Part shown: piece by piece, positions 25,161 through 61,930 of the stretch
Layout of the letters: each line of letters opens with the position of its first letter
Numbering within the stretch: position 1 is the stretch's first letter
NCBI RefSeq assembly: GCF_000006405.1
Contig: NW_003216689.1
Span: 304,439-368,438, forward strand
Source of the DNA: Perkinsus marinus ATCC 50983
Lineage: Eukaryota > Perkinsozoa > Perkinsida > Perkinsidae
Reading direction: 5' to 3'
Length of the DNA stretch: 64,000 nucleotides
The notes under the pieces: model-generated
Databases searched by the model: none
Told to the model about the DNA's origin: nothing
The model's input: only the letters and a program-made list of their open reading frames with translations
Made by a program: the position numbers and the translations under genes

Positions 25161-25242
25161 CGACAGCGGCAGGATTCGAACCTGCGCGGGCAGAGCCCAG
25201 TGGATTTCTAGTCCACCTCCTTAACCACTCGGACACGCTGTC
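25161..25242 (-). tRNA. tRNA-Ser(AGA)
   Basis: An 82-nt cloverleaf on the minus strand. Acceptor GACAGCG pairs with CGCTGTC, discriminator G. The D-arm has TCCGAGTGGTTAAGGA, the anticodon stem GTGGA/TCCAC, the loop CTAGAAA (anticodon AGA). A long variable arm (TGGGCTCTGCCCGC) marks a class II tRNA. The T-arm is GCAGG TTCGAAT CCTGC. It is convergent with the TOG gene. Confidence 0.97.
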
Positions 25243-49754: not shown

Positions 49755-50029
49755 CTATGATATCGATGTATTGTGTTTTCTAGTGATGACGGTGTCCGTC
49801 CCGTTGAAAATATATGCCTTTGATTATGAGGGCATGAACGCTTCGGCCTCACGTTAATAACATTAACTTCATATTGGCATATTTCCAGTCATGAACAATA
49901 ACAACAACGTCAGCTTGACAGCGGATGACTTGAACCCTCCACGGGATCAAGACGCACCTCAGAGGGGTTCCACCCAAAGTTTTAGAGATCGGCCCCCAAA
50001 TTTTAGAGCTCGCCCCAAAATTACCGCTA

Positions 50030-50047
50030 CACATGTGATCACATGTG
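50030..50047. repeat. 18-bp perfect palindrome
   Basis: CACATGTGATCACATGTG is its own reverse complement. It lies 25 bp before the first full 154-bp tandem unit. Confidence 0.8.
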
Positions 50048-50072
50048 GACAGGTGCACCCTTACTCTGTGAT

Positions 50073-50385
50073 CTGAGCGAGTTCGAGCAAGGGCAGCTCA
50101 TCACAGGGAAGGTCGCGTCTTATACAGCTTCGAATAGCCAGCACGACAAGTTGAACAGGCCCACAGGGCACTTCAGTCTGGATCTACTAGCACTGGCGTG
50201 GGACAGGTGCACCCTTACTCTGTGATCTGAGCGAGTTCGAGCAAGCGGAGCTCATCACAGGGAAGGTCGCGTCTTATACAGCTTCGAATAGCCAGCACGA
50301 TAAGTTGAACAGGCCCACAGGGCACTTCAGTCTGGATCTACTAGCACTGGCGTGGTACAGGTGCACCCTTACTCTGTGATCTGAG
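50073..50385 (+). repeat. 154-bp tandem repeat, left block (two units)
   Basis: Units start CTGAGCGAGTTCGAGCAAG at 50073 and 50227; the next CTGAG at 50381-50385 abuts the retrotransposon. A partial unit end (ACAGGTGCACCCTTACTCTG) precedes 50073. The units are nearly identical. Confidence 0.95.
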
Positions 50386-50801
50386 TGTACCGTTGCTTCC
50401 AGAAGACTCAGAGGAACCAACACCGAGACAAGGAGAGGTGGGGTTGCGAGGAGACTGTGCATCGTCGGGGGACTGGGAAGAACTCAAGGCATCGCCGGGC
50501 ATTATGGATGACAATTAATAACTTGAGCCAAGATGGCTACGGTACCAATCTCAACATCATTGATCGTTCAACAGTGAATCTGATACCACAACGGTTGTGG
50601 CACAACCGTATACACGTGCAGACTGGCACGCAGACGCAACCTGGCACGCAGACGCACAAGAAAGGTAGCAGGCCTTGGCAGGAAACTATAAACTTGAAGG
50701 ACTAAAAAGTTGGAGTTGTCTAACACATCCCAATAAAGATGCTCCGTAGAAGGGCACAATACCATCGACACGAGGGCCAGTTAGGCACTGACCATGGTAC
50801 A
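50386..50801 (-). repeat. 3' LTR, 416 bp
   Basis: Begins TGTACCGTTGC and ends CCATGGTACA on the plus strand. It differs from the other LTR by 14 extra bases near 50592-50605 that create a CCACAA/TTGTGG inverted repeat. It contains the spliced-leader sequence at 50522-50543. Confidence 0.97.
50522..50543 (-). other. Spliced-leader sequence in the 3' LTR
   Basis: The minus strand reads 22 nt that begin ACCGTAGCCATC and end TTGGCTCAAG. This equals the alveolate (dinoflagellate/perkinsid) spliced leader, in the form with C where dinoflagellates have T. It is identical to 56245-56266. Confidence 0.9.
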
Positions 50802-50815
50802 ATCGCCCCTGCCGT
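50802..50815 (-). other. Candidate polypurine tract
   Basis: The minus strand ends ..ACGGCAGGGGCGAT directly before the 3' LTR. The purine-rich GGCAGGGGCG is in the right place to prime plus-strand synthesis, though it is not a perfect purine run. Confidence 0.45.
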
Positions 50816-50870: not shown

Positions 50871-52706
50871 TCAGGCGTCCAAGTCGTATCCAAAGGCACT
50901 GAGCCTTGACAGAGACTCATCACTGAGCGGAACCTTCAGCCATGATCCGCTAAAAATGACGTCGTCCACCTTGATCACCACGGGATCAGCATGATGCATC
51001 GTGAAATCACCACTGGCCAACCGTCTTGCACGGTAAACTCTGAAGGTTTTATCCTCAACAGAACCCTCGACACGATGGATCCGTCCAATATCCAGACTAA
51101 CCACCTGGCCGTCAAGTTCACTAGTTTCCCACGCAACCCAATCATCAGCTTCGAGTTGATCGAGGGGAACCACCAGGGCAGGAGGTGTGGCGTCGACAGC
51201 ATCGAGCTCGTTACCAGCATACTTGACTAGTTGACCGAGCGCCACTGGACCGCTGAGACCTTCCACCCAAGCCCTATTTCCCTGAATTTTAGTAACACGG
51301 TAAGGGCCGATAGCGCCAGACCGACGTGAACCACGCCTCACTACAAAGGCTAAATCGTTCTCTCGTACGACACCAAATGAGTTTGGTCGATATCTCCCGG
51401 CCACATCATCAGCCGCCTTTCTCTTTTTCTCACGCAATAAAGCTTTCTTGGAGAGGTAGTTCTCGACAGTAGCGGCATATTGATCAGGAGGCAGTCGCTT
51501 GAAGGGATCCTCGCCGTCGTTGAAGTCGCATAGGGACCCAGCAGCAGTACGTGGCTGGTATCCTAAGGCCACCTCCATCGGTGAGCTTGGTAACCCATCG
51601 CTTCTGGACATATTATGAGCACATCGCGCCCCAGCACAAGAAAGTTCCAACTCTGCCTCAGTCGTTGGCGTCGTCTTGCTCATCACTGTCTTCAGTTCCT
51701 TGACTATAGCCTCACTCACACCGTTAGCTCTTGGCCAAAATGGGGGACTGAATGTCACTTTGGCACCATATCTCTCCCACACGGCGATAGTAGCAGCCGA
51801 CCGAAAACATGGAGCATTATCGCAGTGAGTACGCTTTGGCCAACCATACCGAGACGCCCAACTTTCATAAAAGGCATCTGTAGTAGCCGTAGAAGTAACG
51901 CTGTGCACCTTCTTCATCTCACAAAACCCACTCCTCATGTCCACCATTATGAGAACGTAGACTCGCCCTGATTTCTCCAAACTGGTCTCAACAACGAATG
52001 GACCGGCGTGGTCGAGACTTACTGCCTCCCATAATCGGGCGGAGTCCTTATCATAATCAATAACCTCCGTCAAAGCAGCCCGCGGATGAGCACATGCCTG
52101 GACAGCAGCACTGCGAGCGCAGCGAACACATTTTTGGACATAGTCTGTCGCATCCTGGCGCATTCCAGGCCACCACAGAGATCGAGTCAAGTCGTCGATC
52201 ATTCTCGCAGTTGACGCGTGGAAGTCACCGTGCGCAATGCTGAGTACTTTGTGCCGAGACATAATAGGGACATAATATCGCTTACGACCCTTCTTGTCGG
52301 TATAGAGTATGCTCTGTTCACGCACTTCTATTCTGCCTCGACCATATAGGCGCTGAAGCTCCTCAGGAACTGGGGCATCATCAGGCAGTTCACAGAGTAG
52401 CAGAGAACCAGAACCAATGTCTATCTCAGCCTCACCAAGTAGAACCACCGGGGGGCATACCTCGATCTCACCCTTGATACTAGTTTCATCGTCGTCTCCA
52501 ATGTCCACAAGGACCCGCGAGAAGATGTCTGCCAGGTTGTTGCTGTCGCCCCGTATATGCTCCATCCTGACGAAGGGGACCAGGTCGCCGATGGCTTCCA
52601 GCCAACGGCACCATCTCTTGTAACGAACACCATTTTTGAGGAAATCCTTATAAGAAGGTACCTCTCGACAATGGTGAATGGCAACGACGCTATCTGATTG
52701 GACCAC
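50871..52706 (-). CDS. Retrotransposon Pol, C-terminal part: end of RNase H and integrase
   Basis: The open frame starts in the last part of RNase H (VVVQSDSVVAIHHC.., RGDSNNLADIFSR). Integrase follows. The zinc-binding HHCC is HGDFH..CVRC. The catalytic core has the first Asp in SLDHAGPF, the second in HCDNAPCF and the Glu in GVSEAIVKE, with 35 residues between the last two (DD35E). After the core comes a basic C-terminal domain (LREKKRKAADDVAGRY). No chromodomain is recognised. It is separated from the upstream frame only by a 33-bp palindrome carrying two stops. Confidence 0.92.
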   Translation of the reverse strand: MVQSDSVVAIHHCREVPSYKDFLKNGVRYKRWCRWLEAIGDLVPFVRMEHIRGDSNNLADIFSRVLVDIGDDDETSIKGEIEVCPPVVLLGEAEIDIGSGSLLLCELPDDAPVPEELQRLYGRGRIEVREQSILYTDKKGRKRYYVPIMSRHKVLSIAHGDFHASTARMIDDLTRSLWWPGMRQDATDYVQKCVRCARSAAVQACAHPRAALTEVIDYDKDSARLWEAVSLDHAGPFVVETSLEKSGRVYVLIMVDMRSGFCEMKKVHSVTSTATTDAFYESWASRYGWPKRTHCDNAPCFRSAATIAVWERYGAKVTFSPPFWPRANGVSEAIVKELKTVMSKTTPTTEAELELSCAGARCAHNMSRSDGLPSSPMEVALGYQPRTAAGSLCDFNDGEDPFKRLPPDQYAATVENYLSKKALLREKKRKAADDVAGRYRPNSFGVVRENDLAFVVRRGSRRSGAIGPYRVTKIQGNRAWVEGLSGPVALGQLVKYAGNELDAVDATPPALVVPLDQLEADDWVAWETSELDGQVVSLDIGRIHRVEGSVEDKTFRVYRARRLASGDFTMHHADPVVIKVDDVIFSGSWLKVPLSDESLSRLSAFGYDLDA

Positions 52707-52733
52707 GACTTTAGCTCTTCCTCCGCTAGCGTC

Positions 52734-52766
52734 AGGTATTAGGAGATATCATATCTCCTAATACCT
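52734..52766. repeat. 33-bp perfect palindrome with in-frame stops between the two pol frames
   Basis: Arms AGGTATTAGGAGATAT and its exact complement with one base between. In the minus-strand pol frame it spans exactly 11 codons, two of which are stops (TAG and TGA). Sequence on both sides is in the same frame. Confidence 0.9.
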
Positions 52767-55700
52767 CAGATATGCCCGAAGCCTGCGGAGGCCTTCAACC
52801 AGGGCCAGACCTTCCAGGTCAAACATGGCCCATCTTTTCTCGGAACCACGAAGCTTGCGACTCCAAGTACTCACAACATCACCAAATTGCCCCAGAATCT
52901 CGGGAGTTACCTGCGTACCATCTTCCACCTTATCAAAGTGGAAACGCCACAGTACACAGGCTATTCCCAGGTCGGAAGCATCCGTCTGAAGAACCCATCC
53001 TTCACCTTGCTGTAGCTGCGTTCCAAACGAAACAGGCTGGTGAGCATAAAGCTGGTTCTTGATAGAGGTTTGTAGCCATTCGAAAGCTAGATCATGAGCC
53101 TCCGACCACTGGAAACGTCGACCTTTCACCAATAGGTCTTGAAGAGGAGCTAGGTGTTTCTGGAGTTCTGATGGGTCGTACACGCCCCTTAGATAGTTCA
53201 CCACACCCAGAAAGGAGTGAAGTTCACCACGGTTTCTCGGCTTTGGCAATCTTCTCAACTGGTCTAGAGGTTCCTCTTGAGGCTTCCAACCGTGCTCGTC
53301 AATAACCAATCCCAAGAAGTTCACGGAGCGAGCAGGCCCACAACATTTCTCCTCGGCGACCATCACGTTCTCACTAACCAGTGCACTGATGATGGCCTTC
53401 TTAGCCGCTAAGGCGGATACATCATCGGGCGCACAAATTATAATATCATCAACATACCATAACACGGTCACCTGTGGGGGAAACTCGATACCACTCAACA
53501 TAGACGAGAGATATAACTCCCAGAAATACGGGCTGATACTCAGACCTTGGGGGCACACAAGCCACTTGAAGCGGATGCCACCAAGTACCCCTCCCAAAAA
53601 GCGCTGTGACTCAACGTCAACTGGAACGCTATGATAGGCATTGCTGATATCGAGTGTGATGAAGGATTTAGCATGTCGGGGTATCCCACCTAGGACTGCA
53701 CCGAAGGAGCTCTGCGACGCAAAAGACCGTATTCGGGCATTAACCTCCCGGAGATCATTGAGGACACGAACCTTACCATTACCTTTAAGCTTCAAGAAGG
53801 TAGGACAGAACCATTGAGAGGTATCCTTGTCGTCAATGATTTTGATCCATCCCTTGTCTTCCATCTCTCTTACCAGCTTGTGGGCTACCTCCAACTTCTC
53901 AGGAGCCAGCGGGTATCCCCTATGTCTGGGAATAGGGTGCTCCCTTATCACATCAAGATGAGCTGTGATGTTGATAGAGGACGACTCGATAGCCATGGGG
54001 AGCTTATCGTTGTTTGCTAGGGCAGAAGCGCATAGACTCATCTCGCCAATACCAAGGTCAAGCCGAGCTTTGAGCGCCCTGAGCCCCGGCATGCCCAAGA
54101 GCACCTTACTTCCAACAGGCAGCTCGGGGACTGAGTACCCCTTCAACCGTAGAACCCTCTTAGATGCCGGACCGTAGATTTTCAGTGTGACAGGTTTACC
54201 ACAGACCTTGCCGCCGATGCCCGAGATAGACATGTCCTTCCTGGAGGTATCAGAACGGGCTAAGGCATCAGCACCGTTGACAACACTCTCTTCAACAAGA
54301 TTAAGTTGACTTCCTGGGTCAACCAGCGCCTTAAAGCTACGACCGTCGAAGCTCGTCAAGTAGACATACACAAGATCGTCAACTCTAGAGGAGCTGATAT
54401 CATACTTGTGTTGCGATGGACTAGCCACAGCACAAGCACACAAGCGAGCAGGCTCCGAGGTTTCGGACTCATCATCAGTGAAGGGTTCTCCGCCTCCGAC
54501 ATACGCAGTCTCCACCCTCCTTGGACTCAGTGCAGTGACATTCACAGCAGGCGCCTTCTTCGTGACCGTCTTTGACCCACCAGTCTTCTCAACCTCACCC
54601 TCTTTAGGGCAGTCTCGAGCCAAGTGGCCTTTTACGTGACACTTGAAGCATCGACCTTCCGACCGGTCTTTCGCCTTCTGCTTGTTGACGGGTCGCTGAG
54701 GGTGTCGAGATGTCGATTGGGCGTTCTTAGTCTCAACCTTCGGAACTGCAGAATCGCATCCTCTGGGCCCACGCCCTTGGGTACTATCAGCCTTGGGCCC
54801 CGATCGGCAAGCTCCTGACACTACTCCGGAGTCTGGCGCCTTTGTGCTCATTGGCTCTGGCAGATGAGGGTCTACCGATCGCTTCCAGGTCGGGCCTCGG
54901 AAGACCGTACTTGGTAGTGGACCAAAGTGCATAGGATTGTCAGACGTCAACGTAGCTTCAGACTTGGGTAGAGCCTTAAGCGTCAAGATGGTCTTCTTAG
55001 CTTCCTTGATCAGCTCACGGAAGGTTGAGTAATTGTCAGCGGTTTTCAACGCCGATATCCAGGGACCGATAGAGCTTCTCCATGACGGAACAACGAGTAT
55101 TGCGGATAGTATCCTCTCTCTTCTTTCTTTCCAATTGAAGGGAGACTGATCTGCAGCAGCAGAGTGGCTGGCTAGCAAGAGCCACAACTCGCTCTCGCGT
55201 TGGAGGAAACTCTCGATACTCTCGCCTTCTTGGAGCGATAAGGTCGCCCATGACGACATTGTACGAGCCAGAGATATCTTGGGACGAACCCTATCATTGA
55301 TGACCTCCAACACGTCCTTTAGCCAGCGCGCGACAACAGCATTGTAAGAGTTATATTCTGTTTTGAACGCCTGACGTACATCAACTGCGGCTTCAGACAT
55401 ATCCTTCCCAACCCAGTAGCTCCATCTGCTGACAGCTTGTCTATCACCACCACTATCTTGACAGACCTTCACCAAGCTAGAGCGAAGAGATGATATCAGA
55501 GCAGGTGGACAGAGGTAGGCTAACGCGAGAAGTCGAACGGAGGCAGCTGATCTGGAGACACTGAAAGCCCTGTCCAGGCGTTCCAACCAGTTCCATACAG
55601 CAGGCGAGCCCTCGACAACATCTAAAACACTTAGGGACCTTGAGGCAACCGAATTCGAAGACATTTTAGATGCAAGGGAACCTCGCAAGCATTCCAGGCG

Positions 55701-56225
55701 CCAACTCTGACAGAATTTTGTCACATTGACACCTAATGGTTCCCCTCCTTGACCGATAAGGGCGAAAGAAGGAGAAATCCATGGGTTGAAGCCAATACCC
55801 AAGATGGATTCCAACAAATGGAAGGTGTCCACCTGAAGAGCCTGCACAACCGAGGGAAGTGGTTGTATGTTGGCCCCTGTCACACCTTCCACCTCAAAAA
55901 GGAGTTCGTCAATTGCAGCCCTTCGTCGAGAGGGGACGTGGGGGCTGGGAACCCCAAGCGGTACGGTAACTTGGTGAATGACTTGATTGTCATTGTCATT
56001 GTCATTGTCATCGTCTGGAGACTGACGTTGCTGACTTCTGGTATGGATAACCGCCGTCACTCGTTCTTCACCTGATGCACCCCCTCGAGCCCCACGGTGG
56101 GTGCCAGTTGTACCGTTGCTTCCAGAAGACTCAGAGGAACCAACACCGAGACAAGGAGAGGTGGGGTTGCGAGGAGACTGTGCATCGTCGGGGGACTGGG
56201 AAGAACTCAAGGCATCGCCGGGCAT
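52758..56225 (-). CDS. Retrotransposon Gag-Pol: zinc knuckle, protease, reverse transcriptase, RNase H start
   Basis: First ATG at 56225 (MPGDALSSSQSPDDA), inside the 5' LTR. The Gag-like region is about 500 residues. The zinc knuckle is CFKCHVKGHLARDC. The aspartic protease shows ALVDPGSQLNLVEE, with DPGS in place of the usual DTGA/DSGA. Reverse transcriptase shows LDISNAYHSVPVD, QGLSISPYFWELYL and the catalytic YVDDIII. The start of RNase H is LQTDASDLGIACVLW. The frame ends LRRLRAYLRY at a TAG lying in the 33-bp palindrome. Codons also run across the LTR boundary and the primer-binding site, so the Gag N-terminus is partly LTR-encoded. Confidence 0.93.
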   Translation of the reverse strand: MPGDALSSSQSPDDAQSPRNPTSPCLGVGSSESSGSNGTTGTHRGARGGASGEERVTAVIHTRSQQRQSPDDDNDNDNDNQVIHQVTVPLGVPSPHVPSRRRAAIDELLFEVEGVTGANIQPLPSVVQALQVDTFHLLESILGIGFNPWISPSFALIGQGGEPLGVNVTKFCQSWRLECLRGSLASKMSSNSVASRSLSVLDVVEGSPAVWNWLERLDRAFSVSRSAASVRLLALAYLCPPALISSLRSSLVKVCQDSGGDRQAVSRWSYWVGKDMSEAAVDVRQAFKTEYNSYNAVVARWLKDVLEVINDRVRPKISLARTMSSWATLSLQEGESIESFLQRESELWLLLASHSAAADQSPFNWKERRERILSAILVVPSWRSSIGPWISALKTADNYSTFRELIKEAKKTILTLKALPKSEATLTSDNPMHFGPLPSTVFRGPTWKRSVDPHLPEPMSTKAPDSGVVSGACRSGPKADSTQGRGPRGCDSAVPKVETKNAQSTSRHPQRPVNKQKAKDRSEGRCFKCHVKGHLARDCPKEGEVEKTGGSKTVTKKAPAVNVTALSPRRVETAYVGGGEPFTDDESETSEPARLCACAVASPSQHKYDISSSRVDDLVYVYLTSFDGRSFKALVDPGSQLNLVEESVVNGADALARSDTSRKDMSISGIGGKVCGKPVTLKIYGPASKRVLRLKGYSVPELPVGSKVLLGMPGLRALKARLDLGIGEMSLCASALANNDKLPMAIESSSINITAHLDVIREHPIPRHRGYPLAPEKLEVAHKLVREMEDKGWIKIIDDKDTSQWFCPTFLKLKGNGKVRVLNDLREVNARIRSFASQSSFGAVLGGIPRHAKSFITLDISNAYHSVPVDVESQRFLGGVLGGIRFKWLVCPQGLSISPYFWELYLSSMLSGIEFPPQVTVLWYVDDIIICAPDDVSALAAKKAIISALVSENVMVAEEKCCGPARSVNFLGLVIDEHGWKPQEEPLDQLRRLPKPRNRGELHSFLGVVNYLRGVYDPSELQKHLAPLQDLLVKGRRFQWSEAHDLAFEWLQTSIKNQLYAHQPVSFGTQLQQGEGWVLQTDASDLGIACVLWRFHFDKVEDGTQVTPEILGQFGDVVSTWSRKLRGSEKRWAMFDLEGLALVEGLRRLRAYLRY
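56086..56106 (-). other. Primer-binding site, tRNA-Lys-like
   Basis: The minus strand reads TGGCACCCACCGTGGGGCTC 2 nt from the LTR end. The complement TCGAGCCCCAC..GGTGGGTGCCA has the shape of a tRNA T-arm plus acceptor plus CCA, close to known tRNA-Lys 3' ends. The matching tRNA gene is not in the window. Confidence 0.7.
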
Positions 56226-56510
56226 TATGGATGACAATTAATAACTTGAGCCAAGATGGCTACGGTACCAATCTCAACATCATTGATCGTTCAACAGTGA
56301 ATCTGATACCACAACCGTATACACGTGCAGACTGGCACGCAGACGCAACCTGGCACGCAGACGCACAAGAAAGGTAGCAGGCCTTGGCAGGAAACTATAA
56401 ACTTGAAGGACTAAAAAGTTGGAGTTGTCTAACACATCCCAATAAAGATGCTCCGTAGAAGGGCACAATACCATCGACACGAGGGCCAGTTAGGCACTGA
56501 CCATGGTACA
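56109..56510 (-). repeat. 5' LTR, 402 bp
   Basis: Relative to transcription it contains an about 244-bp U3-like region with an 18-bp direct repeat (TTGCGTCTGCGTGCCAG), the spliced-leader sequence at 56266-56245, a 19-nt leader and the Gag ATG at 56225, then Gag codons to the LTR end. Confidence 0.97.
56245..56266 (-). other. Spliced-leader sequence in the 5' LTR
   Basis: Exact copy of 50522-50543. Its final AG is followed by TTATTAATTG and the Gag ATG 19 nt after the leader. Confidence 0.9.
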
Positions 56511-56823
56511 CTGAGCGAGTTCGAGCAAGGGCAGCTCATCACAGGGAAGGTCGCGTCTTATACAGCTTCGAATAGCCAGCACGATAAGTTGAACAGGCAC
56601 ACAGGGCACTTCAGTCTGGATCTACTAGCACTGGCGTGGGACAGGTGCACCCTTACTCTGTGATCTGAGCGAGTTCGAGCAAGGGCAGCTCATCACAGGG
56701 AAGGTCGCGTCTTATACAGCTTCGAGTAGCCAGCACGACAAGTTGAACAGGCCCACAGGGCACTTCAGTCTGGATCTACTAGCACTGGCGTGGGACAGGT
56801 GCACCCTTACTCTGTGATCTGAG
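56511..56823 (+). repeat. 154-bp tandem repeat, right block (two units)
   Basis: Units start at 56511 and 56665, with a terminal CTGAGCGA at 56819. Spacing is exactly 154 bp, as in the left block. The retrotransposon has split an array of at least four units. Confidence 0.95.
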
Positions 56824-58429
56824 CGAATCCATCCGGCACGACTGAGAAAAGCCACGGTGTTTTGCGTGTCAATAACGCGCAGTACTCTGAATGAGTAAAA
56901 TTGACAATTGTCTATTTGTAGCTATGCAAGAGAAGTCTTACACGAATGCTACTCTTTCTTTCGCGTCATTCTAGCCCTTTCCCTGTCTCGAACGCGTTGT
57001 TCGCATTCTCGATTCTGCGTGGATACCTTACTACGTCATATGATGCTGCTGATCACAATGCATAAAGAACTAGTACAGTTCTGGATCTCTTTTCGTCGAA
57101 AGCGAGAGAGACTTTCTCGCCTGAGAGAGACTTTCTCGCCTGGCAATCGAATACGTTAGGAACTGATGGGAGCATCCACCACTGTGAGAGTAAGAATCAG
57201 CATGATGTTCACCTGGTGATTCATCAGCCTGTCAATTGCCAAGCTTCATGAAACCTCCATCTACCGGGAATTGGAGTCGCGGCACTGTCTGCGACTAACC
57301 TTCAGATTAGCCACTGTGATCGCCTTCAGCGGAAACAATGCTTGCTGGCTCGTGAATGCTCATGTCTGACGGTTCTGCGTTTGACTGCGAAGCAGATAAC
57401 CTAGCGAGGGTCTTGGTCTACACCTTTTCAATCTCGAATTCAACAATTGAAAGAACACATTAGGTGAATGAAATTTGGTTTTCGACAAGTGAAAGGTGTT
57501 TTTCGCGAAATGAAAATTCAAATTCGAAATGAAAGTTCGATTTTCGTAGACCGGTCGAAAATGAAAGTTCAAATTCGTGAATGAAATTTATGAATTCGGA
57601 AACGCAAGTTCAAATTCGTCGAACACAAGACCAATTTCGACCAATGAAAGCTCACTTTCACCACATCTCGATATGCGCTATCCACACTCCACGAGTTGAC
57701 AACTCGCACAATGTGCGAGGACTGCTCGAGGTACTTCTCAAATGCGAAAGCCTTCTCAAAGCCCTTTATTTGTGGGTTGAATGGGACTGTAAGACGCATG
57801 AATGCAAACTGGCAGATGGAAGGTGGTTAGGATTCACGCAGGTCGCACAACCGTCTTCCTCGTGTCGATGAAGGATTAGATGATGCCAACACAACAGGAT
57901 CAATGTTGTGGGACACTTCGCTAACTCTAGCACGCATGTCTTGTCCAAGACGTCACGTTTTCATCATCAACCAGGAAAACACGATCGAGCCATGACACTG
58001 AACGAATCGCATTATTTCATGCGTCAATTTAAACCAGAAACTATCAGGAGGCGTGACTCACAATGAAATGGTGAGGATCACCAGCTCTCATCCGGGGGAC
58101 AGCTGCCGTTGTTTGAGTACGTCATACCTGAAGGCAGTGACATGGACTTGCATATACGAATTTTCCTTTCTTTAGTCGTCGAATTCGTTGTCTACGAATC
58201 CCAGGATGAGAAAGCCAGTCCTGAGCTTCTGGGGTGGGGCTCGTCGGTTCAACTGTTTCTCCAATTAGTTTTATACCGTGGTGTGCAATCATCTACAGTG
58301 ACGTATTCATATAGTTTTGGTCTCGGTTGACTCGCGTGCGAGACGCCTACTATTGACAAGCTATTCGTTCAGTCATTTCTTCTGGCTTCACTCTCGCGTC
58401 TCGACAATCTTGAGTCCCGCAGCACATAA
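56824..58429. other. Intergenic with ATGAAAGTTCAAATTCG-like repeats
   Basis: A 21-bp duplication (GAGAGAGACTTTCTCGCCTG) lies at about 57105-57142. The degenerate tandem block at 57455-57660 is described separately. No gene is supported. Confidence 0.5.
57455..57660 (+). repeat. Degenerate tandem block of ATGAAAnTTCAAATTCG motifs
   Basis: ATGAAATTTGGTTTTCGAC, AAATGAAAATTCAAATTCG, AAATGAAAGTTCGATTTTCG, AAATGAAAGTTCAAATTCGTG, CGCAAGTTCAAATTCGTCG and similar blocks follow each other every 20-35 bp with poor phase. Confidence 0.7.
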
Positions 58430-60073: not shown

Positions 60074-61930
60074 TCAATGACGACACACGTTGTTTCTCAC
60101 AGCTAATCTCTCCCGCGATGGGAACATGTAAGGATAGCGCTGTCGGTTGGCATCCGCAAACCTGACCATATCGAGGATTGTCTTCTCATCGCCTCATCGG
60201 CTTACCAAGGGATCCAAGTGTTCAAGTCAATCCTTTCGGTACGAGATTTTGAAGCATCATCCCAGCAACAGACGCGTATCTGAACATCAACCAATGCCGC
60301 CTCCGGACGAAGGCCATCTCACCCCGCAAACTCTCCACGCATCAGCCATCGATGGGTTCTTCGCCAGAGCAACGGCTATACCTGATCGGCAAGGCAGTAT
60401 GTGACACAGCCAGCGACCCCCCACCTCCCCGTGCTTTGGTCATCTTCGCTCCTCTCGATGATACCGCCGTCCGAGAATGACAACTGCTTCAATAAGTCGC
60501 CTTCTGGTGGCATCTGAATGCAGTTGAGTGCACTCCTGTTAGGCGCGTGGTGAAGTTACGAAGAAGCTCATGTGGGCCCCTCTCGTTGGGAAGTCCATCG
60601 CCCAGTGCCCCTTGGTCCTGACAGAGCACCAGATTCCATCATTCCTGAACTCCTCGATTTCTCACCGCGCCGGCAAAGGAGCGCCCGTCAGCGGATGCTT
60701 CTGCATTGAGTTTCTGTCGAAGATATTGGGAAAGGTCAAGTCGGGCATGTCCGCTCCTGAGGGCCGCAGCTGCCTGATGTGAAACATGGTCGATGATGGA
60801 CCCACTCCTCCAAGCGAAGTTCATCGCTAGAAATCTAGTCGGCAGGGCCACGGGATATCGCGGATCCTTGGGAGAGCAGTATTTGAAGGCCGCTACTTGT
60901 TCGGCAGCTGGCATCTGGGAATACGAAGAGGCGCTCCTTAATACACAGACTGGGCACCCTATGGACTAAGATGATGGGAGAAGACTCGAATTCCTCGTTT
61001 CAATCTGCGGACATAGGGTGCAAGTTCGAACTACAAACATCGCCCGATTAGTTCAGCTGGATAGAATGTCTGCCTACGGAGCAGATGGTCGTAGGTTCGA
61101 ATCCTGCATCGGGTATTTAATATTATCGCAAGCTTCACCTCGTCCATATCGCCGTGTATGAATAATGTTCTGTCATCAGGCTCTCCGAGGGCTTCTATAT
61201 ATTTCTCCATCAGGAAGCCTCTGGTATATGTCTCTAGGGCGTACCTAAACCAACCACCGCCTCCCACAAGCAGAGCATCGAATGAAGACCACACACCTGT
61301 CCTCTTTCCGGCCATTTACTTTCCTGAACTTAGCTTCGACGGCGTCGTCCAGAACGGCGTACACTATCTTATCCCGGAAGGATTCAAACCTTGCCAAGCA
61401 GTACTTGTGAGGATACGAGTGACGACGCGAGAGGCACCTTCTGGACTCGAGAGCGGCACCCAACAGCAGAGCTTTCGACCACTTTTTGAAGGCCCTTGTA
61501 GATTCGACGATAACGAAGACCTGGGGCGGACTGTACGGGAGATCTTCAGCGACTGAGTCACATCGACAACAGCGTGGAGTTCGTGCAGACGGATTTCCAA
61601 GATGTCCAGTTCGTATGCGAATGGAACAAGATCCACGATCCGCACTGGGGAGGCACGCGGGGTGTCGGCCATGTACCTGTGGCCTCAACAAGGGAAATGA
61701 CCGGAGGCACGTACCACTACGGATTCTGTTGGCAGTCCCATTTGAGCTTGCGGGATTGAGGTCTCTCAAAAACTGTTGCTTCAGCTGGAGGCTCTCGGGC
61801 CAGCAGACGTTGTAGAAACGTAACGTATCGTCGCACCCACACCTTCAAAGTGGTACCGCACAGGAGCTCTCGACGTTACAGCATACTTCGTTATCATGAT
61901 GATGCCGATTGACAAGGGCCAGCCAGTCGA
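60074..61930 (-). CDS. GT17-family N-acetylglucosaminyltransferase-like protein (MGAT3-related)
   Basis: Multi-exon minus-strand gene. MGAT3 adds a bisecting GlcNAc to N-glycans in the Golgi. Seen in family order: RIVDLVPFAYELDILEIRL, HELHAVVD, VFVIVESTRAFKKWS, RFESFRDKIVYAV, WFRYALETYTRGFLMEKYIE, the metal-binding stretch LFIHGDMDE, then after an intron MPAAEQVAAFKYC, PTRFLAMNFAWRSG, ADMPDLTFPNIFDRNS, CSVRTKGHWAMDFP, GAHMSFF, LKQLSFSDGG and the end ANRQRYPYMFPSRE with TGA at 60074. The upstream exon (FLQRLLAREPPAEATVFERP) and start are uncertain (61.8-61.95 kb), so a membrane anchor is not established. The intron at about 60910-61130 contains a tRNA-Arg gene on the opposite strand. Two joins need introns of only about 28 and 21 nt; otherwise a frameshift and an in-frame TGA would break the gene. 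Confidence 0.75.
61042..61115 (+). tRNA. tRNA-Arg(ACG)
   Basis: A 74-nt cloverleaf. Acceptor GCCCGAT pairs with ATCGGGT (one G-T pair), discriminator A. D-arm GTTCAGCTGGATAGAAT, anticodon stem TCTGC/GCAGA with loop CTACGGA (anticodon ACG), T-arm GTAGG TTCGAAT CCTGC. Followed by TTT. It lies inside an intron of the GT17 gene, on the other strand. Confidence 0.96.

What the first reader, a model, noticed from the sequence alone, without database searches (positions are those of the whole stretch)
56225..56510. LTR retrotransposon with the spliced leader built into its LTRs
Seen: both LTRs contain, at the same place, 22 nt equal to the alveolate trans-spliced leader (begins ACCGTAGCCATC, ends TTGGCTCAAG), on the transcribed strand, 19 nt before the Gag ATG. 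Known: in dinoflagellates and Perkinsus nuclear mRNAs receive this leader by trans-splicing, and retroposed mRNAs leave leader relics in the genome. Inference: trans-splicing at the encoded AG would reproduce exactly the encoded sequence. The genomic RNA could then start with the leader, and the leader would be the start of the R region, so first-strand transfer still works on a trans-spliced template. The element may have captured the leader by reverse transcription of its own trans-spliced RNA and kept it. A host leader used as the 5' end of a retrotransposon genome would be a new replication arrangement.
Basis: partly seen in the sequence, partly recalled or inferred. Interest (0 to 1): 0.92.

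Follow-up and report, generated by a model that had tools for sequence, protein, structure and literature searches.

The report
Retrotransposons carrying the host's spliced leader
In what is very probably the oyster parasite Perkinsus marinus, several different LTR retrotransposons carry the short RNA leader that the cell splices onto its own messages at the place where their RNA genome should begin, and the copies show traces of replacement by the cell's two leader versions, which suggests that the host supplies the 5' end of the element's RNA.

Summary
Both LTRs of the window element (56109-56510, 50386-50801, minus strand) hold the exact 22-nt leader, 19 nt before the Gag ATG. The assembly is very probably Perkinsus marinus. 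It holds 68 exact copies of nt 4-22 of the 22-nt leader and 36 of the 21-nt leader core, some of them SL RNA genes. Of 18 leader pairs compared, 17 are LTR pairs with the leader inside both LTRs. Exact sites fall into 21 contexts with unrelated flanks.
Three DNA signatures favour a trans-spliced RNA as template of reverse transcription: (1) the one-base loss that separates the host's two leaders recurs in 7 copies of 4 of 5 families, though single-base losses are rare in the flanks; (2) leader nt 3 is a change hotspot (13 changes, 2.9 expected; G4 has 1) and both LTRs of an element agree there, as at a U3/R junction; (3) single relic and acceptor-shift copies.
Against: within families the leader is not more conserved than its flanks (57 changes, 54 expected), most RT and integrase hits have no leader in reach, and a 2011 RNA test of such loci found no clear product. 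No RNA was examined here.

The parts
56109..56510 (-). 5' LTR, 402 nt (TGTACC...GGTACA): U3 56267-56510, leader 56245-56266, R/U5 56109-56244
   Evidence: LTR comparison
56245..56266 (-). spliced leader in the 5' LTR, ACCGTAGCCATCTTGGCTCAAG, proposed start of R; ends in AG
   Evidence: equal to host SL RNA genes L062, L038 and PmaSL1
56223..56225 (-). Gag start codon, first ATG after the leader, 19 nt behind it, inside the LTR
56085..56106 (-). primer binding site candidate TGGCACCCACC..., two bases behind the 5' LTR; matches neither of the two tRNA genes in the window
52758..56225 (-). gag-pol reading frame, first part: CCHC knuckle, reverse transcriptase, RNase H; ends at an in-frame stop
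50871..52706 (-). pol reading frame, second part, same frame: integrase zinc-binding domain and catalytic core
50802..50813 (-). polypurine-rich tract candidate (GGCAGGGGCGAT) next to the 3' LTR
50386..50801 (-). 3' LTR, 416 nt, identical to the 5' LTR except for a 14-nt insertion
50522..50543 (-). spliced leader in the 3' LTR, identical to that of the 5' LTR
56511..56515 (.). target-site duplication CTCAG, copy next to the 5' LTR (other copy 50381-50385), inside a 154-bp tandem repeat
61042..61115 (+). tRNA-Arg(ACG) gene whose 3' end with CCA is complementary over 18 nt to the PBS of related family I (C50)
25161..25242 (-). tRNA-Ser(AGA) gene whose 3' end with CCA (Rfam ends) is complementary over 18 nt to the PBS of family C, and over 14 nt to that of family D

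Best explanation
These are LTR retrotransposons (the window element is of Ty3/gypsy type by its domains) whose genomic RNA is a substrate of the host's spliced-leader trans-splicing. Proposed cycle: a transcript entering from U3, or by read-through from outside, carries the encoded leader; the spliceosome joins a host leader at the AG that ends it (leader nt 21-22), usually restoring the same sequence. The RNA that is packaged and reverse transcribed then begins with the leader, so the leader is the start of R. Minus-strand strong-stop DNA ends with a leader copy, which pairs with the leader in the 3' LTR, so first-strand transfer works, and leader nt 4-22 of the new LTRs come from the host leader and not from the parent LTR. 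The U3/R junction falls at nt 3. Shown in DNA: leader inside both LTRs of 17 pairs, exchange of the L- for the S-type leader core, hotspot at nt 3, one relic and one acceptor shift. Inferred: the RNA 5' end, the trans-splicing reaction, the strand transfer, and the reason why nt 1-3 are not refreshed (for example a modified cap that stops reverse transcriptase).
For: (a) Eighteen pairs, chosen because both members carry a leader, were compared; 17 are LTR pairs with the leader inside both LTRs, in most with TG..CA ends, with purine-rich stretches before the 3' LTR and PBS-like starts behind the 5' LTR; the PBS of family I matches tRNA-Arg over 18 nt and that of family C tRNA-Ser over 18 nt. 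(b) The 79 distinct exact sites held (53 L, 26 S) form 22 flank clusters (BLAST E 1e-4), one of them the SL RNA genes; 9 of the other 21 hold at least one of the 17 pairs. (c) Leader exchange: 7 copies in 4 of 5 families (C L131, L169, L172; B L179, L181; A L014; G L109) lack the T that separates the 22-nt from the 21-nt host leader (L169 and L172 are probably one lineage; L014 is aligned one place off but reads as an S-type core with one mismatch). Flanks hold 5 such deletions in 13,595 cells; 0.05 expected at that site, P(>=6) about 2e-11. L109 has 99.3% flank identity to its L-type relative. One more family C hit, not fetched (C105:11218), overlaps an S-type core with one mismatch. (d) Leader nt 3: 13 changes against 2.86 expected, G4: 1; flank CpG sites are not hypermutable (0.90 and 0.76 relative), so CpG decay does not explain it. 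Nt 1-3 agree between both LTRs in 15 of 15 L-type pairs while related elements differ there, even L090 and L079 with identical flanks, so the change arises before integration. (e) L036 has a full leader followed by leader nt 8-22, the relic form described for dinoflagellate retrogenes (PMC12014239 and PMC3229502, passages). (f) Family H: C39 and C96 read leader+TGCGAG+TTTCG, C281 reads leader+TTTCG, as from use of the next AG. (g) The first ATG after the leader is 19-36 nt away in 16 of 17 5' LTRs (85 nt in family G).
Against: No RNA data. Within the 5 families the leader core changes as fast as its flanks (57 against about 54 expected; family C alone 1.89 against 1.36 per column; informative columns in C 13 of 19 against 78 of 235). 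The nt 3 hotspot is clear in A and B (0 of 143 and 0 of 167 flank columns reach it), weaker in G and F (1 of 353, 5 of 164) and absent in C (165 of 218). Two further copies have a one-base loss at the leader's last G (L144, L145). Two family F copies (L185, L186), 98% identical to the query, share an 8-bp loss that removes the leader's AG. The relic in L036 is in one LTR of its pair only, and that LTR is aberrant. Only 11 of 142 RT hits and 17 of 118 integrase hits have a same-strand leader within the tested distances. Zhang et al. 2011 tested leader-like loci by 3' RACE and RNA blot with no clear product (PMC3101222, section 16); their primers LongSL1 and LongSL2 match families F and C exactly, and shortSL2 matches S-type loci. 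In C. elegans Cer1 the full-length RNA is not trans-spliced (PMC3315495, passages). The hotspot and the deletion site were singled out after looking; the 17 pairs, family G and L109 came from leader-based searches.
Confidence: 0.74

Rival explanations
1. An ancestor captured the leader once from a trans-spliced RNA, and it has since been kept as a DNA element by selection, for instance as transcription start or promoter box (a promoter role of leader relics has been proposed for dinoflagellates), as translation leader, or simply as R. Element RNA starts there by ordinary initiation and is not trans-spliced.
For: The leader is well placed as a 5' UTR start; the promoter idea is in print for dinoflagellate leader relics (PMC6050394, passages); the junction hotspot at nt 3 would also fit ordinary initiation at nt 3/4; published RNA tests of these loci were negative.
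Against: Does not predict repeated exchange between the host's two leader types in 4 of 5 families, the relic cut at the internal AG (L036), or the acceptor shift in family H. SL RNA genes share no flank similarity with the LTRs at the threshold used (separate cluster). The lack of conservation inside families does not favour selection on the DNA either.
Confidence: 0.17
2. Element RNAs are trans-spliced only now and then, as many host mRNAs are; the main genomic RNA starts elsewhere, and the leader in the LTR is an occasional by-product of reverse transcription of such RNAs.
For: Cer1 of C. elegans behaves so (spliced mRNA with and without SL1, genomic RNA without); most RT and integrase hits have no leader in reach.
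Against: In the 17 pairs, which belong to 9 clusters, the leader has the same structural place, and the change hotspot lies at the leader's 5' end in 4 of 5 families.
Confidence: 0.07
3. The leader-like sites are retroposed host mRNAs or SL RNA genes that happen to lie near or inside repeats.
For: Leader relics in retroposed genes are known in these organisms; three L-type and at least three S-type sites here are SL RNA genes with a GT donor; 12 of the 21 clusters hold none of the LTR pairs.
Against: The leader is inside both LTRs of 17 pairs, with PBS-like sequence and a gag-like frame behind and, in the window, a target duplication outside the LTRs; in the window the leader is followed by TTATTAATT, not by a donor and SL RNA intron.
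Confidence: 0.02

Closest known systems
Ty3/gypsy LTR retrotransposons (Metaviridae)
   Same: LTRs, target duplication, CCHC gag, RT, RNase H, H2C2 and core integrase in that order; PBS-like sequence and purine-rich tract.
   Different: The host's spliced leader lies inside both LTRs at the place of the proposed U3/R junction; Gag starts inside the LTR before the PBS (a Gag start inside the LTR is recalled for yeast Ty1, not looked up).
Dinoflagellate and Perkinsus leader relics in retroposed genes (DinoRL)
   Same: A trans-spliced leader copied into the genome by reverse transcription; one copy here (L036) has the relic form lacking the first seven leader bases.
   Different: Here the leader is part of an LTR, in most copies a single leader, and appears to be renewed instead of accumulating as relics.
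Cer1 of C. elegans
   Same: An LTR retrotransposon in an organism with leader trans-splicing, with one spliced mRNA that receives SL1 (PMC3315495, passages).
   Different: Its full-length RNA is not trans-spliced; the passages read mention no leader copy in its LTR.
Unexplained SL-like genomic sequences of P. marinus (Zhang et al. 2011)
   Same: Over 100 leader copies without SL RNA intron, 'most started with T', in tandem, with variable downstream sequence; LongSL1, LongSL2 and shortSL2 primers match families F, C and S-type loci exactly.
   Different: [quoted passage not shown] the sections and passages read do not connect them with retrotransposons.

Membership tests
Ty3/gypsy LTR retrotransposon | Two LTRs with TG..CA ends and a short target duplication | tested here: met
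   window element: TGTACC..GGTACA, CTCAG duplication
Ty3/gypsy LTR retrotransposon | Domain order RT, RNase H, integrase behind a CCHC gag | tested here: met
   Pfam RVT_1, RT_RNaseH, RT_RNaseH_2, Integrase_H2C2, rve; zf-CCHC just under its cut-off (20.4 against 20.8); no protease family listed
Ty3/gypsy LTR retrotransposon | PBS complementary to a host tRNA 3' end | tested here: inconclusive
   18 of 18 nt for families I (Arg) and C (Ser); the window family A matches neither of the two tRNAs in the window, and no other tRNAs were searched
Ty3/gypsy LTR retrotransposon | RT places it in the Ty3/gypsy clade | not tested
   no RT tree was made; weak protein hits include plant polyproteins with the same Pfam set and also a retroviral pol
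Substrate of spliced-leader trans-splicing | RNA carries a leader that the element's own DNA does not encode | not testable with these tools
   the DNA encodes the leader; no RNA data. Leader-type exchange is indirect evidence
Substrate of spliced-leader trans-splicing | AG acceptor at the leader junction | tested here: met
   the leader ends in AG; no other AG lies between leader and ATG in the window element
Leader relic of a retroposed gene (DinoRL) | Leader lacking its first seven bases behind a full leader | tested here: not met
   window LTRs carry one full leader; of the 13 family A copies aligned only L012/L036 (one site) shows the relic form
SL RNA gene | Leader followed by a GT donor and the SL RNA intron | tested here: not met
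   followed by TTATTAATT in the window; true SL RNA genes are L062, L063, L038, L107, L108, L129

The most novel reading that the evidence does not exclude
A whole guild of LTR retrotransposons has given up control of its RNA 5' end: the host's spliced leader, added by trans-splicing, is the start of R, is re-supplied by the host in every replication round (either of two leader types), and makes a promoter in U3 dispensable, because any read-through transcript receives a correct, capped, transfer-competent 5' end.
Probability: 0.45. Interest if true: 0.93.

Novelty: new variant of a known kind. Interest (0 to 1): 0.85.

Why it matters
LTR elements must have the same sequence at both RNA ends to transfer the first DNA strand, and their 5' end is normally set by their own promoter (established knowledge). 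Here the end appears to be set by the host's splicing machinery. That would be a new way to replicate, would account for at least part of the >100 leader-like loci left unexplained in Perkinsus in 2011, and would make the genome a record of leader use and of where reverse transcriptase stops at a spliced-leader cap. It also gives a clear prediction for other leader-splicing eukaryotes (dinoflagellates, kinetoplastids, flatworms, nematodes, tunicates). In the PMC library held here, no listed paper was seen to describe it: searches; only passages or sections of 11 papers were read.

Tried and rejected
Leader conservation inside families: tried with copies of families A, B, C and F found by flank similarity plus family G; it does not show excess conservation and is reported as negative. 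CpG decay as cause of the nt 3 hotspot: rejected, flank CpG sites are not faster and G4 shows 1 change against 13. Seed bias as cause of the boundary at nt 4: tested with the 15-mer of nt 8-22; 68 of 73 exact matches extend to G4. Copia-type elements: RVT_2 gave 0 hits, but no control rang, so this says nothing. Relatives elsewhere: the only viral contigs match (L101) is a virus-like contig with dinoflagellate-type leaders, not an LTR element. Protein relatives: one close hit, a P. marinus polyprotein (91% over 67% of the query) on a contig of 65,250 bases, the length of contig C176 here, which with the SL RNA intron primer match is the basis for the species name; the other five are weak. Partial-leader tandems in L100, L110, L122 and L103 are cut at points not behind an AG and are not explained by trans-splicing (L100). 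A leader-free control family (C9) could not be fetched.

Rows dropped before counts. Searches used 68 of 80 aligned copies; the 12 dropped second LTRs or duplicates are C L078, L087; B L080, L039, L089; F L070, L082; A L010, L012, L017, L042; G L094. Of the flank-search hits, 13 of 18 (A), 21 of 24 (B), 10 of 15 (F) and 30 of 41 (C) were aligned; the rest do not span the leader, except four in C (C48, C80:259487, C105:11218, C106) that touch it and were not fetched. One search used 142 of the 149 RT hits (7 secondary fragments left out), all 118 integrase hits and 150 leader sites (100 of the 129 were listed; 50). The C286 pair is a longer duplication and was not counted. One search used exact sites of the loci held, not of the whole genome.

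Full report
WHAT IS THERE. The window element lies on the minus strand between 56510 and 50386. Its 5' LTR (56109-56510, 402 nt) and 3' LTR (50386-50801, 416 nt) show no substitution and one 14-nt insertion. They start TGTACC, end GGTACA, and sit between copies of CTCAG inside a 154-bp tandem repeat. The leader ACCGTAGCCATCTTGGCTCAAG is at 56245-56266 and 50522-50543; 100 shuffles gave no match with up to 3 mismatches. U3 before it is 244 nt; 136 nt of LTR follow. The first ATG after the leader, 19 nt on, starts Gag and lies inside the LTR, before the PBS candidate. Pfam finds a CCHC knuckle (just under cut-off), RT and RNase H, then, in the same frame behind an in-frame stop, the integrase domains.

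THE HOST. The genome is an assembly of 54.46 Mb in 347 contigs. Its SL RNA genes (L062, L063, L038) carry the same 22 nt followed by the intron start of P. marinus: primer PmaSL-LNF3 matches exactly, and the S-type primer PmaSL-S2F3 matches L108. A close protein relative of the window polyprotein is recorded from P. marinus ATCC 50983 on a contig of 65,250 bases, the length of contig C176 here. P. marinus has two leaders: 22 nt (L-type) and 21 nt (S-type, one T less) (PMC3101222, passages).

CENSUS. Leader nt 4-22 occur exactly 68 times, 129 times with up to 3 mismatches, against 5 for the reversed control. The 22-mer with up to 3 mismatches occurs 99 times against 0 for the control. The S-type core occurs exactly 36 times, 50 times with up to one mismatch, control 0. 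Of the 68 exact sites, 24 lie in 12 same-strand pairs 5.1-6.3 kb apart; three are SL RNA genes. Eighteen pairs with a leader in both members, so chosen for it, were compared: 17 are LTR pairs with the leader inside both LTRs, 82-309 nt behind the start of the aligned repeat and 21-138 nt before its end; the C281 value of 309 is cut by the ends of the stretches held, and the C176 copy has an aberrant 3' LTR. The PBS of family I matches the tRNA-Arg at window 61042 over 18 nt, that of family C the tRNA-Ser at 25161 over 18 nt. The first ATG after the leader is 19-36 nt away in 16 of 17 5' LTRs and 85 nt in family G. The exact sites among the loci held have 79 distinct contexts (53 L, 26 S). With the leader masked they form 22 clusters at E 1e-4: one is the SL RNA genes; of the 21 others, 9 hold at least one of the 17 pairs and 12 hold none. 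So at this threshold the leader is the only sequence these contexts share. Not all elements have it: 11 of 142 RT hits and 17 of 118 integrase hits have a same-strand leader within the tested distances, against 1 and 1 on the opposite strand; many of these hits are fragments, and RT hits may include other kinds of element.

TEST 1, CONSERVATION: NEGATIVE. LTR copies of families A, B, C and F were collected by flank similarity, family G by leader searches. After dropping 12 second LTRs or duplicates, 68 of 80 copies remained. Changes counted on trees built without the leader: leader nt 4-22 have 57 changes in 19 columns (3.0 each), flanks 2.86 per column. In F and G the core has no substitution (two F copies have a deletion there), in A 0.26 against 0.41 per column, in B 0.84 against 0.74, in C 1.89 against 1.36.

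TEST 2, LEADER EXCHANGE: POSITIVE. Seven copies lack one T of the TT at nt 13-14, the single difference between the host's leaders: L131, L169, L172 (family C), L179, L181 (B), L014 (A) and L109 (G). L169 and L172 share another deletion and are probably one lineage. L014 is placed by the alignment at nt 11 but reads as an S-type core with one mismatch. L109 is an exact S-type core in an LTR 99.3% identical to its L-type relative; the others carry 1 to 5 further changes. Single-base deletions elsewhere: 5 in 13,595 flank cells, and 2 copies (L144, L145) at the last G of the leader. At the TT site 0.05 are expected; P for 6 or more about 2e-11. L109 was found by an S-type search; the six others come from flank searches. 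A further family C hit that was not fetched (C105:11218) overlaps an S-type core with one mismatch.

TEST 3, JUNCTION: POSITIVE IN FOUR OF FIVE FAMILIES. Leader nt 3 changed 13 times (C 1, B 5, F 2, A 3, G 2) against 2.86 expected, nt 4 once. CpG sites in the flanks are not faster than others (0.90 and 0.76), so methylation decay is not the cause. Flank columns that reach the value of nt 3: 0 of 167 in B, 0 of 143 in A, 1 of 353 in G, 5 of 164 in F, but 165 of 218 in C. Both LTRs agree at nt 1-3 in 15 of 15 L-type pairs, while near-identical elements differ (family B: L079 C, L090 T with identical flanks; family G: T, C, G). So the change is made before integration. An error-prone site at the U3/R border is what strand transfer at an RNA 5' end would leave (inference). 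The boundary is not made by the search word: of 73 exact matches of nt 8-22, 68 extend to nt 4, while 38 of those 68 have C at nt 3.

TEST 4, RARE FORMS. L036 (the C176 copy of the window's family) has a full leader followed by nt 8-22, as when a new leader is joined at the internal AG; this relic form is described for dinoflagellate retrogenes (PMC12014239, PMC3229502, passages). It is in one LTR of the pair only. In family H the C281 element lacks the TGCGAG that follows the leader in C39 and C96, as from use of that AG as acceptor. Each is a single case.

MECHANISM. The simplest reading that joins tests 2-4 is a cycle in which the element's RNA receives a host leader by trans-splicing and is then reverse transcribed, with the leader as start of R. 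Exchange of leader type with both flanks unchanged speaks against recombination between element families for L109. A promoter or translation role of a leader inherited once explains its place, but not the exchanges. Shown: the DNA facts. Inferred: every RNA step.

PRIOR WORK. Zhang et al. 2011 (PMC3101222: sections 14 and 16 and passages) saw over 100 leader-like loci in P. marinus, tested some by 3' RACE and RNA blot without clear products, and concluded that they are not SL RNA genes. Their primers LongSL1 and LongSL2 match families F and C exactly and shortSL2 matches S-type loci; shortSL1 matches two loci with 2 mismatches. This says what at least some of those loci are, and is also evidence that these RNAs were not abundant there. 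Cer1 of C. elegans has a leader only on a spliced mRNA (PMC3315495, passages). In Echinococcus a transcript started by a solo LTR is cis-spliced to the acceptor that a related species uses for its leader (PMC4558846, passages). No paper describing a leader in LTRs was seen in the listings.

Noticed in passing
L101:2746-2764 and 2893-2911 (viral contigs record): An AT-rich, virus-like contig holds two dinoflagellate-type leaders 147 bp apart in front of a GC-richer 254-aa reading frame, as if a host mRNA had been retroposed into a large DNA virus of a dinoflagellate.
   Followed up: partly
L036 (G000:C176:50419): The 3' LTR of this copy ends 27 nt behind the leader in a fold-back palindrome of its own R/U5 sequence, like an aberrant snap-back cDNA end.
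   Followed up: no
L100, L110, L122, L103: Full leader followed by a partial leader of 7, 6, 20 (+7) and 17 nt; the cut points are not behind an AG, so trans-splicing alone does not explain them.
   Followed up: no
L096 (G000:C164:155382): A second, decayed leader remnant (ATCTTGGCTCAA) lies directly upstream of the intact leader.
   Followed up: no
L185, L186 (G000:C234:72474 and 93201): Two family F LTRs 20.7 kb apart share an 8-bp loss that removes the leader's 3' part with the AG.
   Followed up: no
window 52707-52760: The gag-pol frame of the window element is interrupted by an in-frame stop between RNase H and integrase; integrase hits of seven other leader-bearing pairs lie in open frames of 1414-1968 aa.
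   Followed up: no
window 49919-50372 and 56511-56964: The element is inserted in an array of 154-bp tandem repeats.
   Followed up: no
G000:C228:8479-13326 and C247:32235-37082: The same inverted pair of family C LTRs about 4.6 kb apart occurs on two contigs.
   Followed up: no
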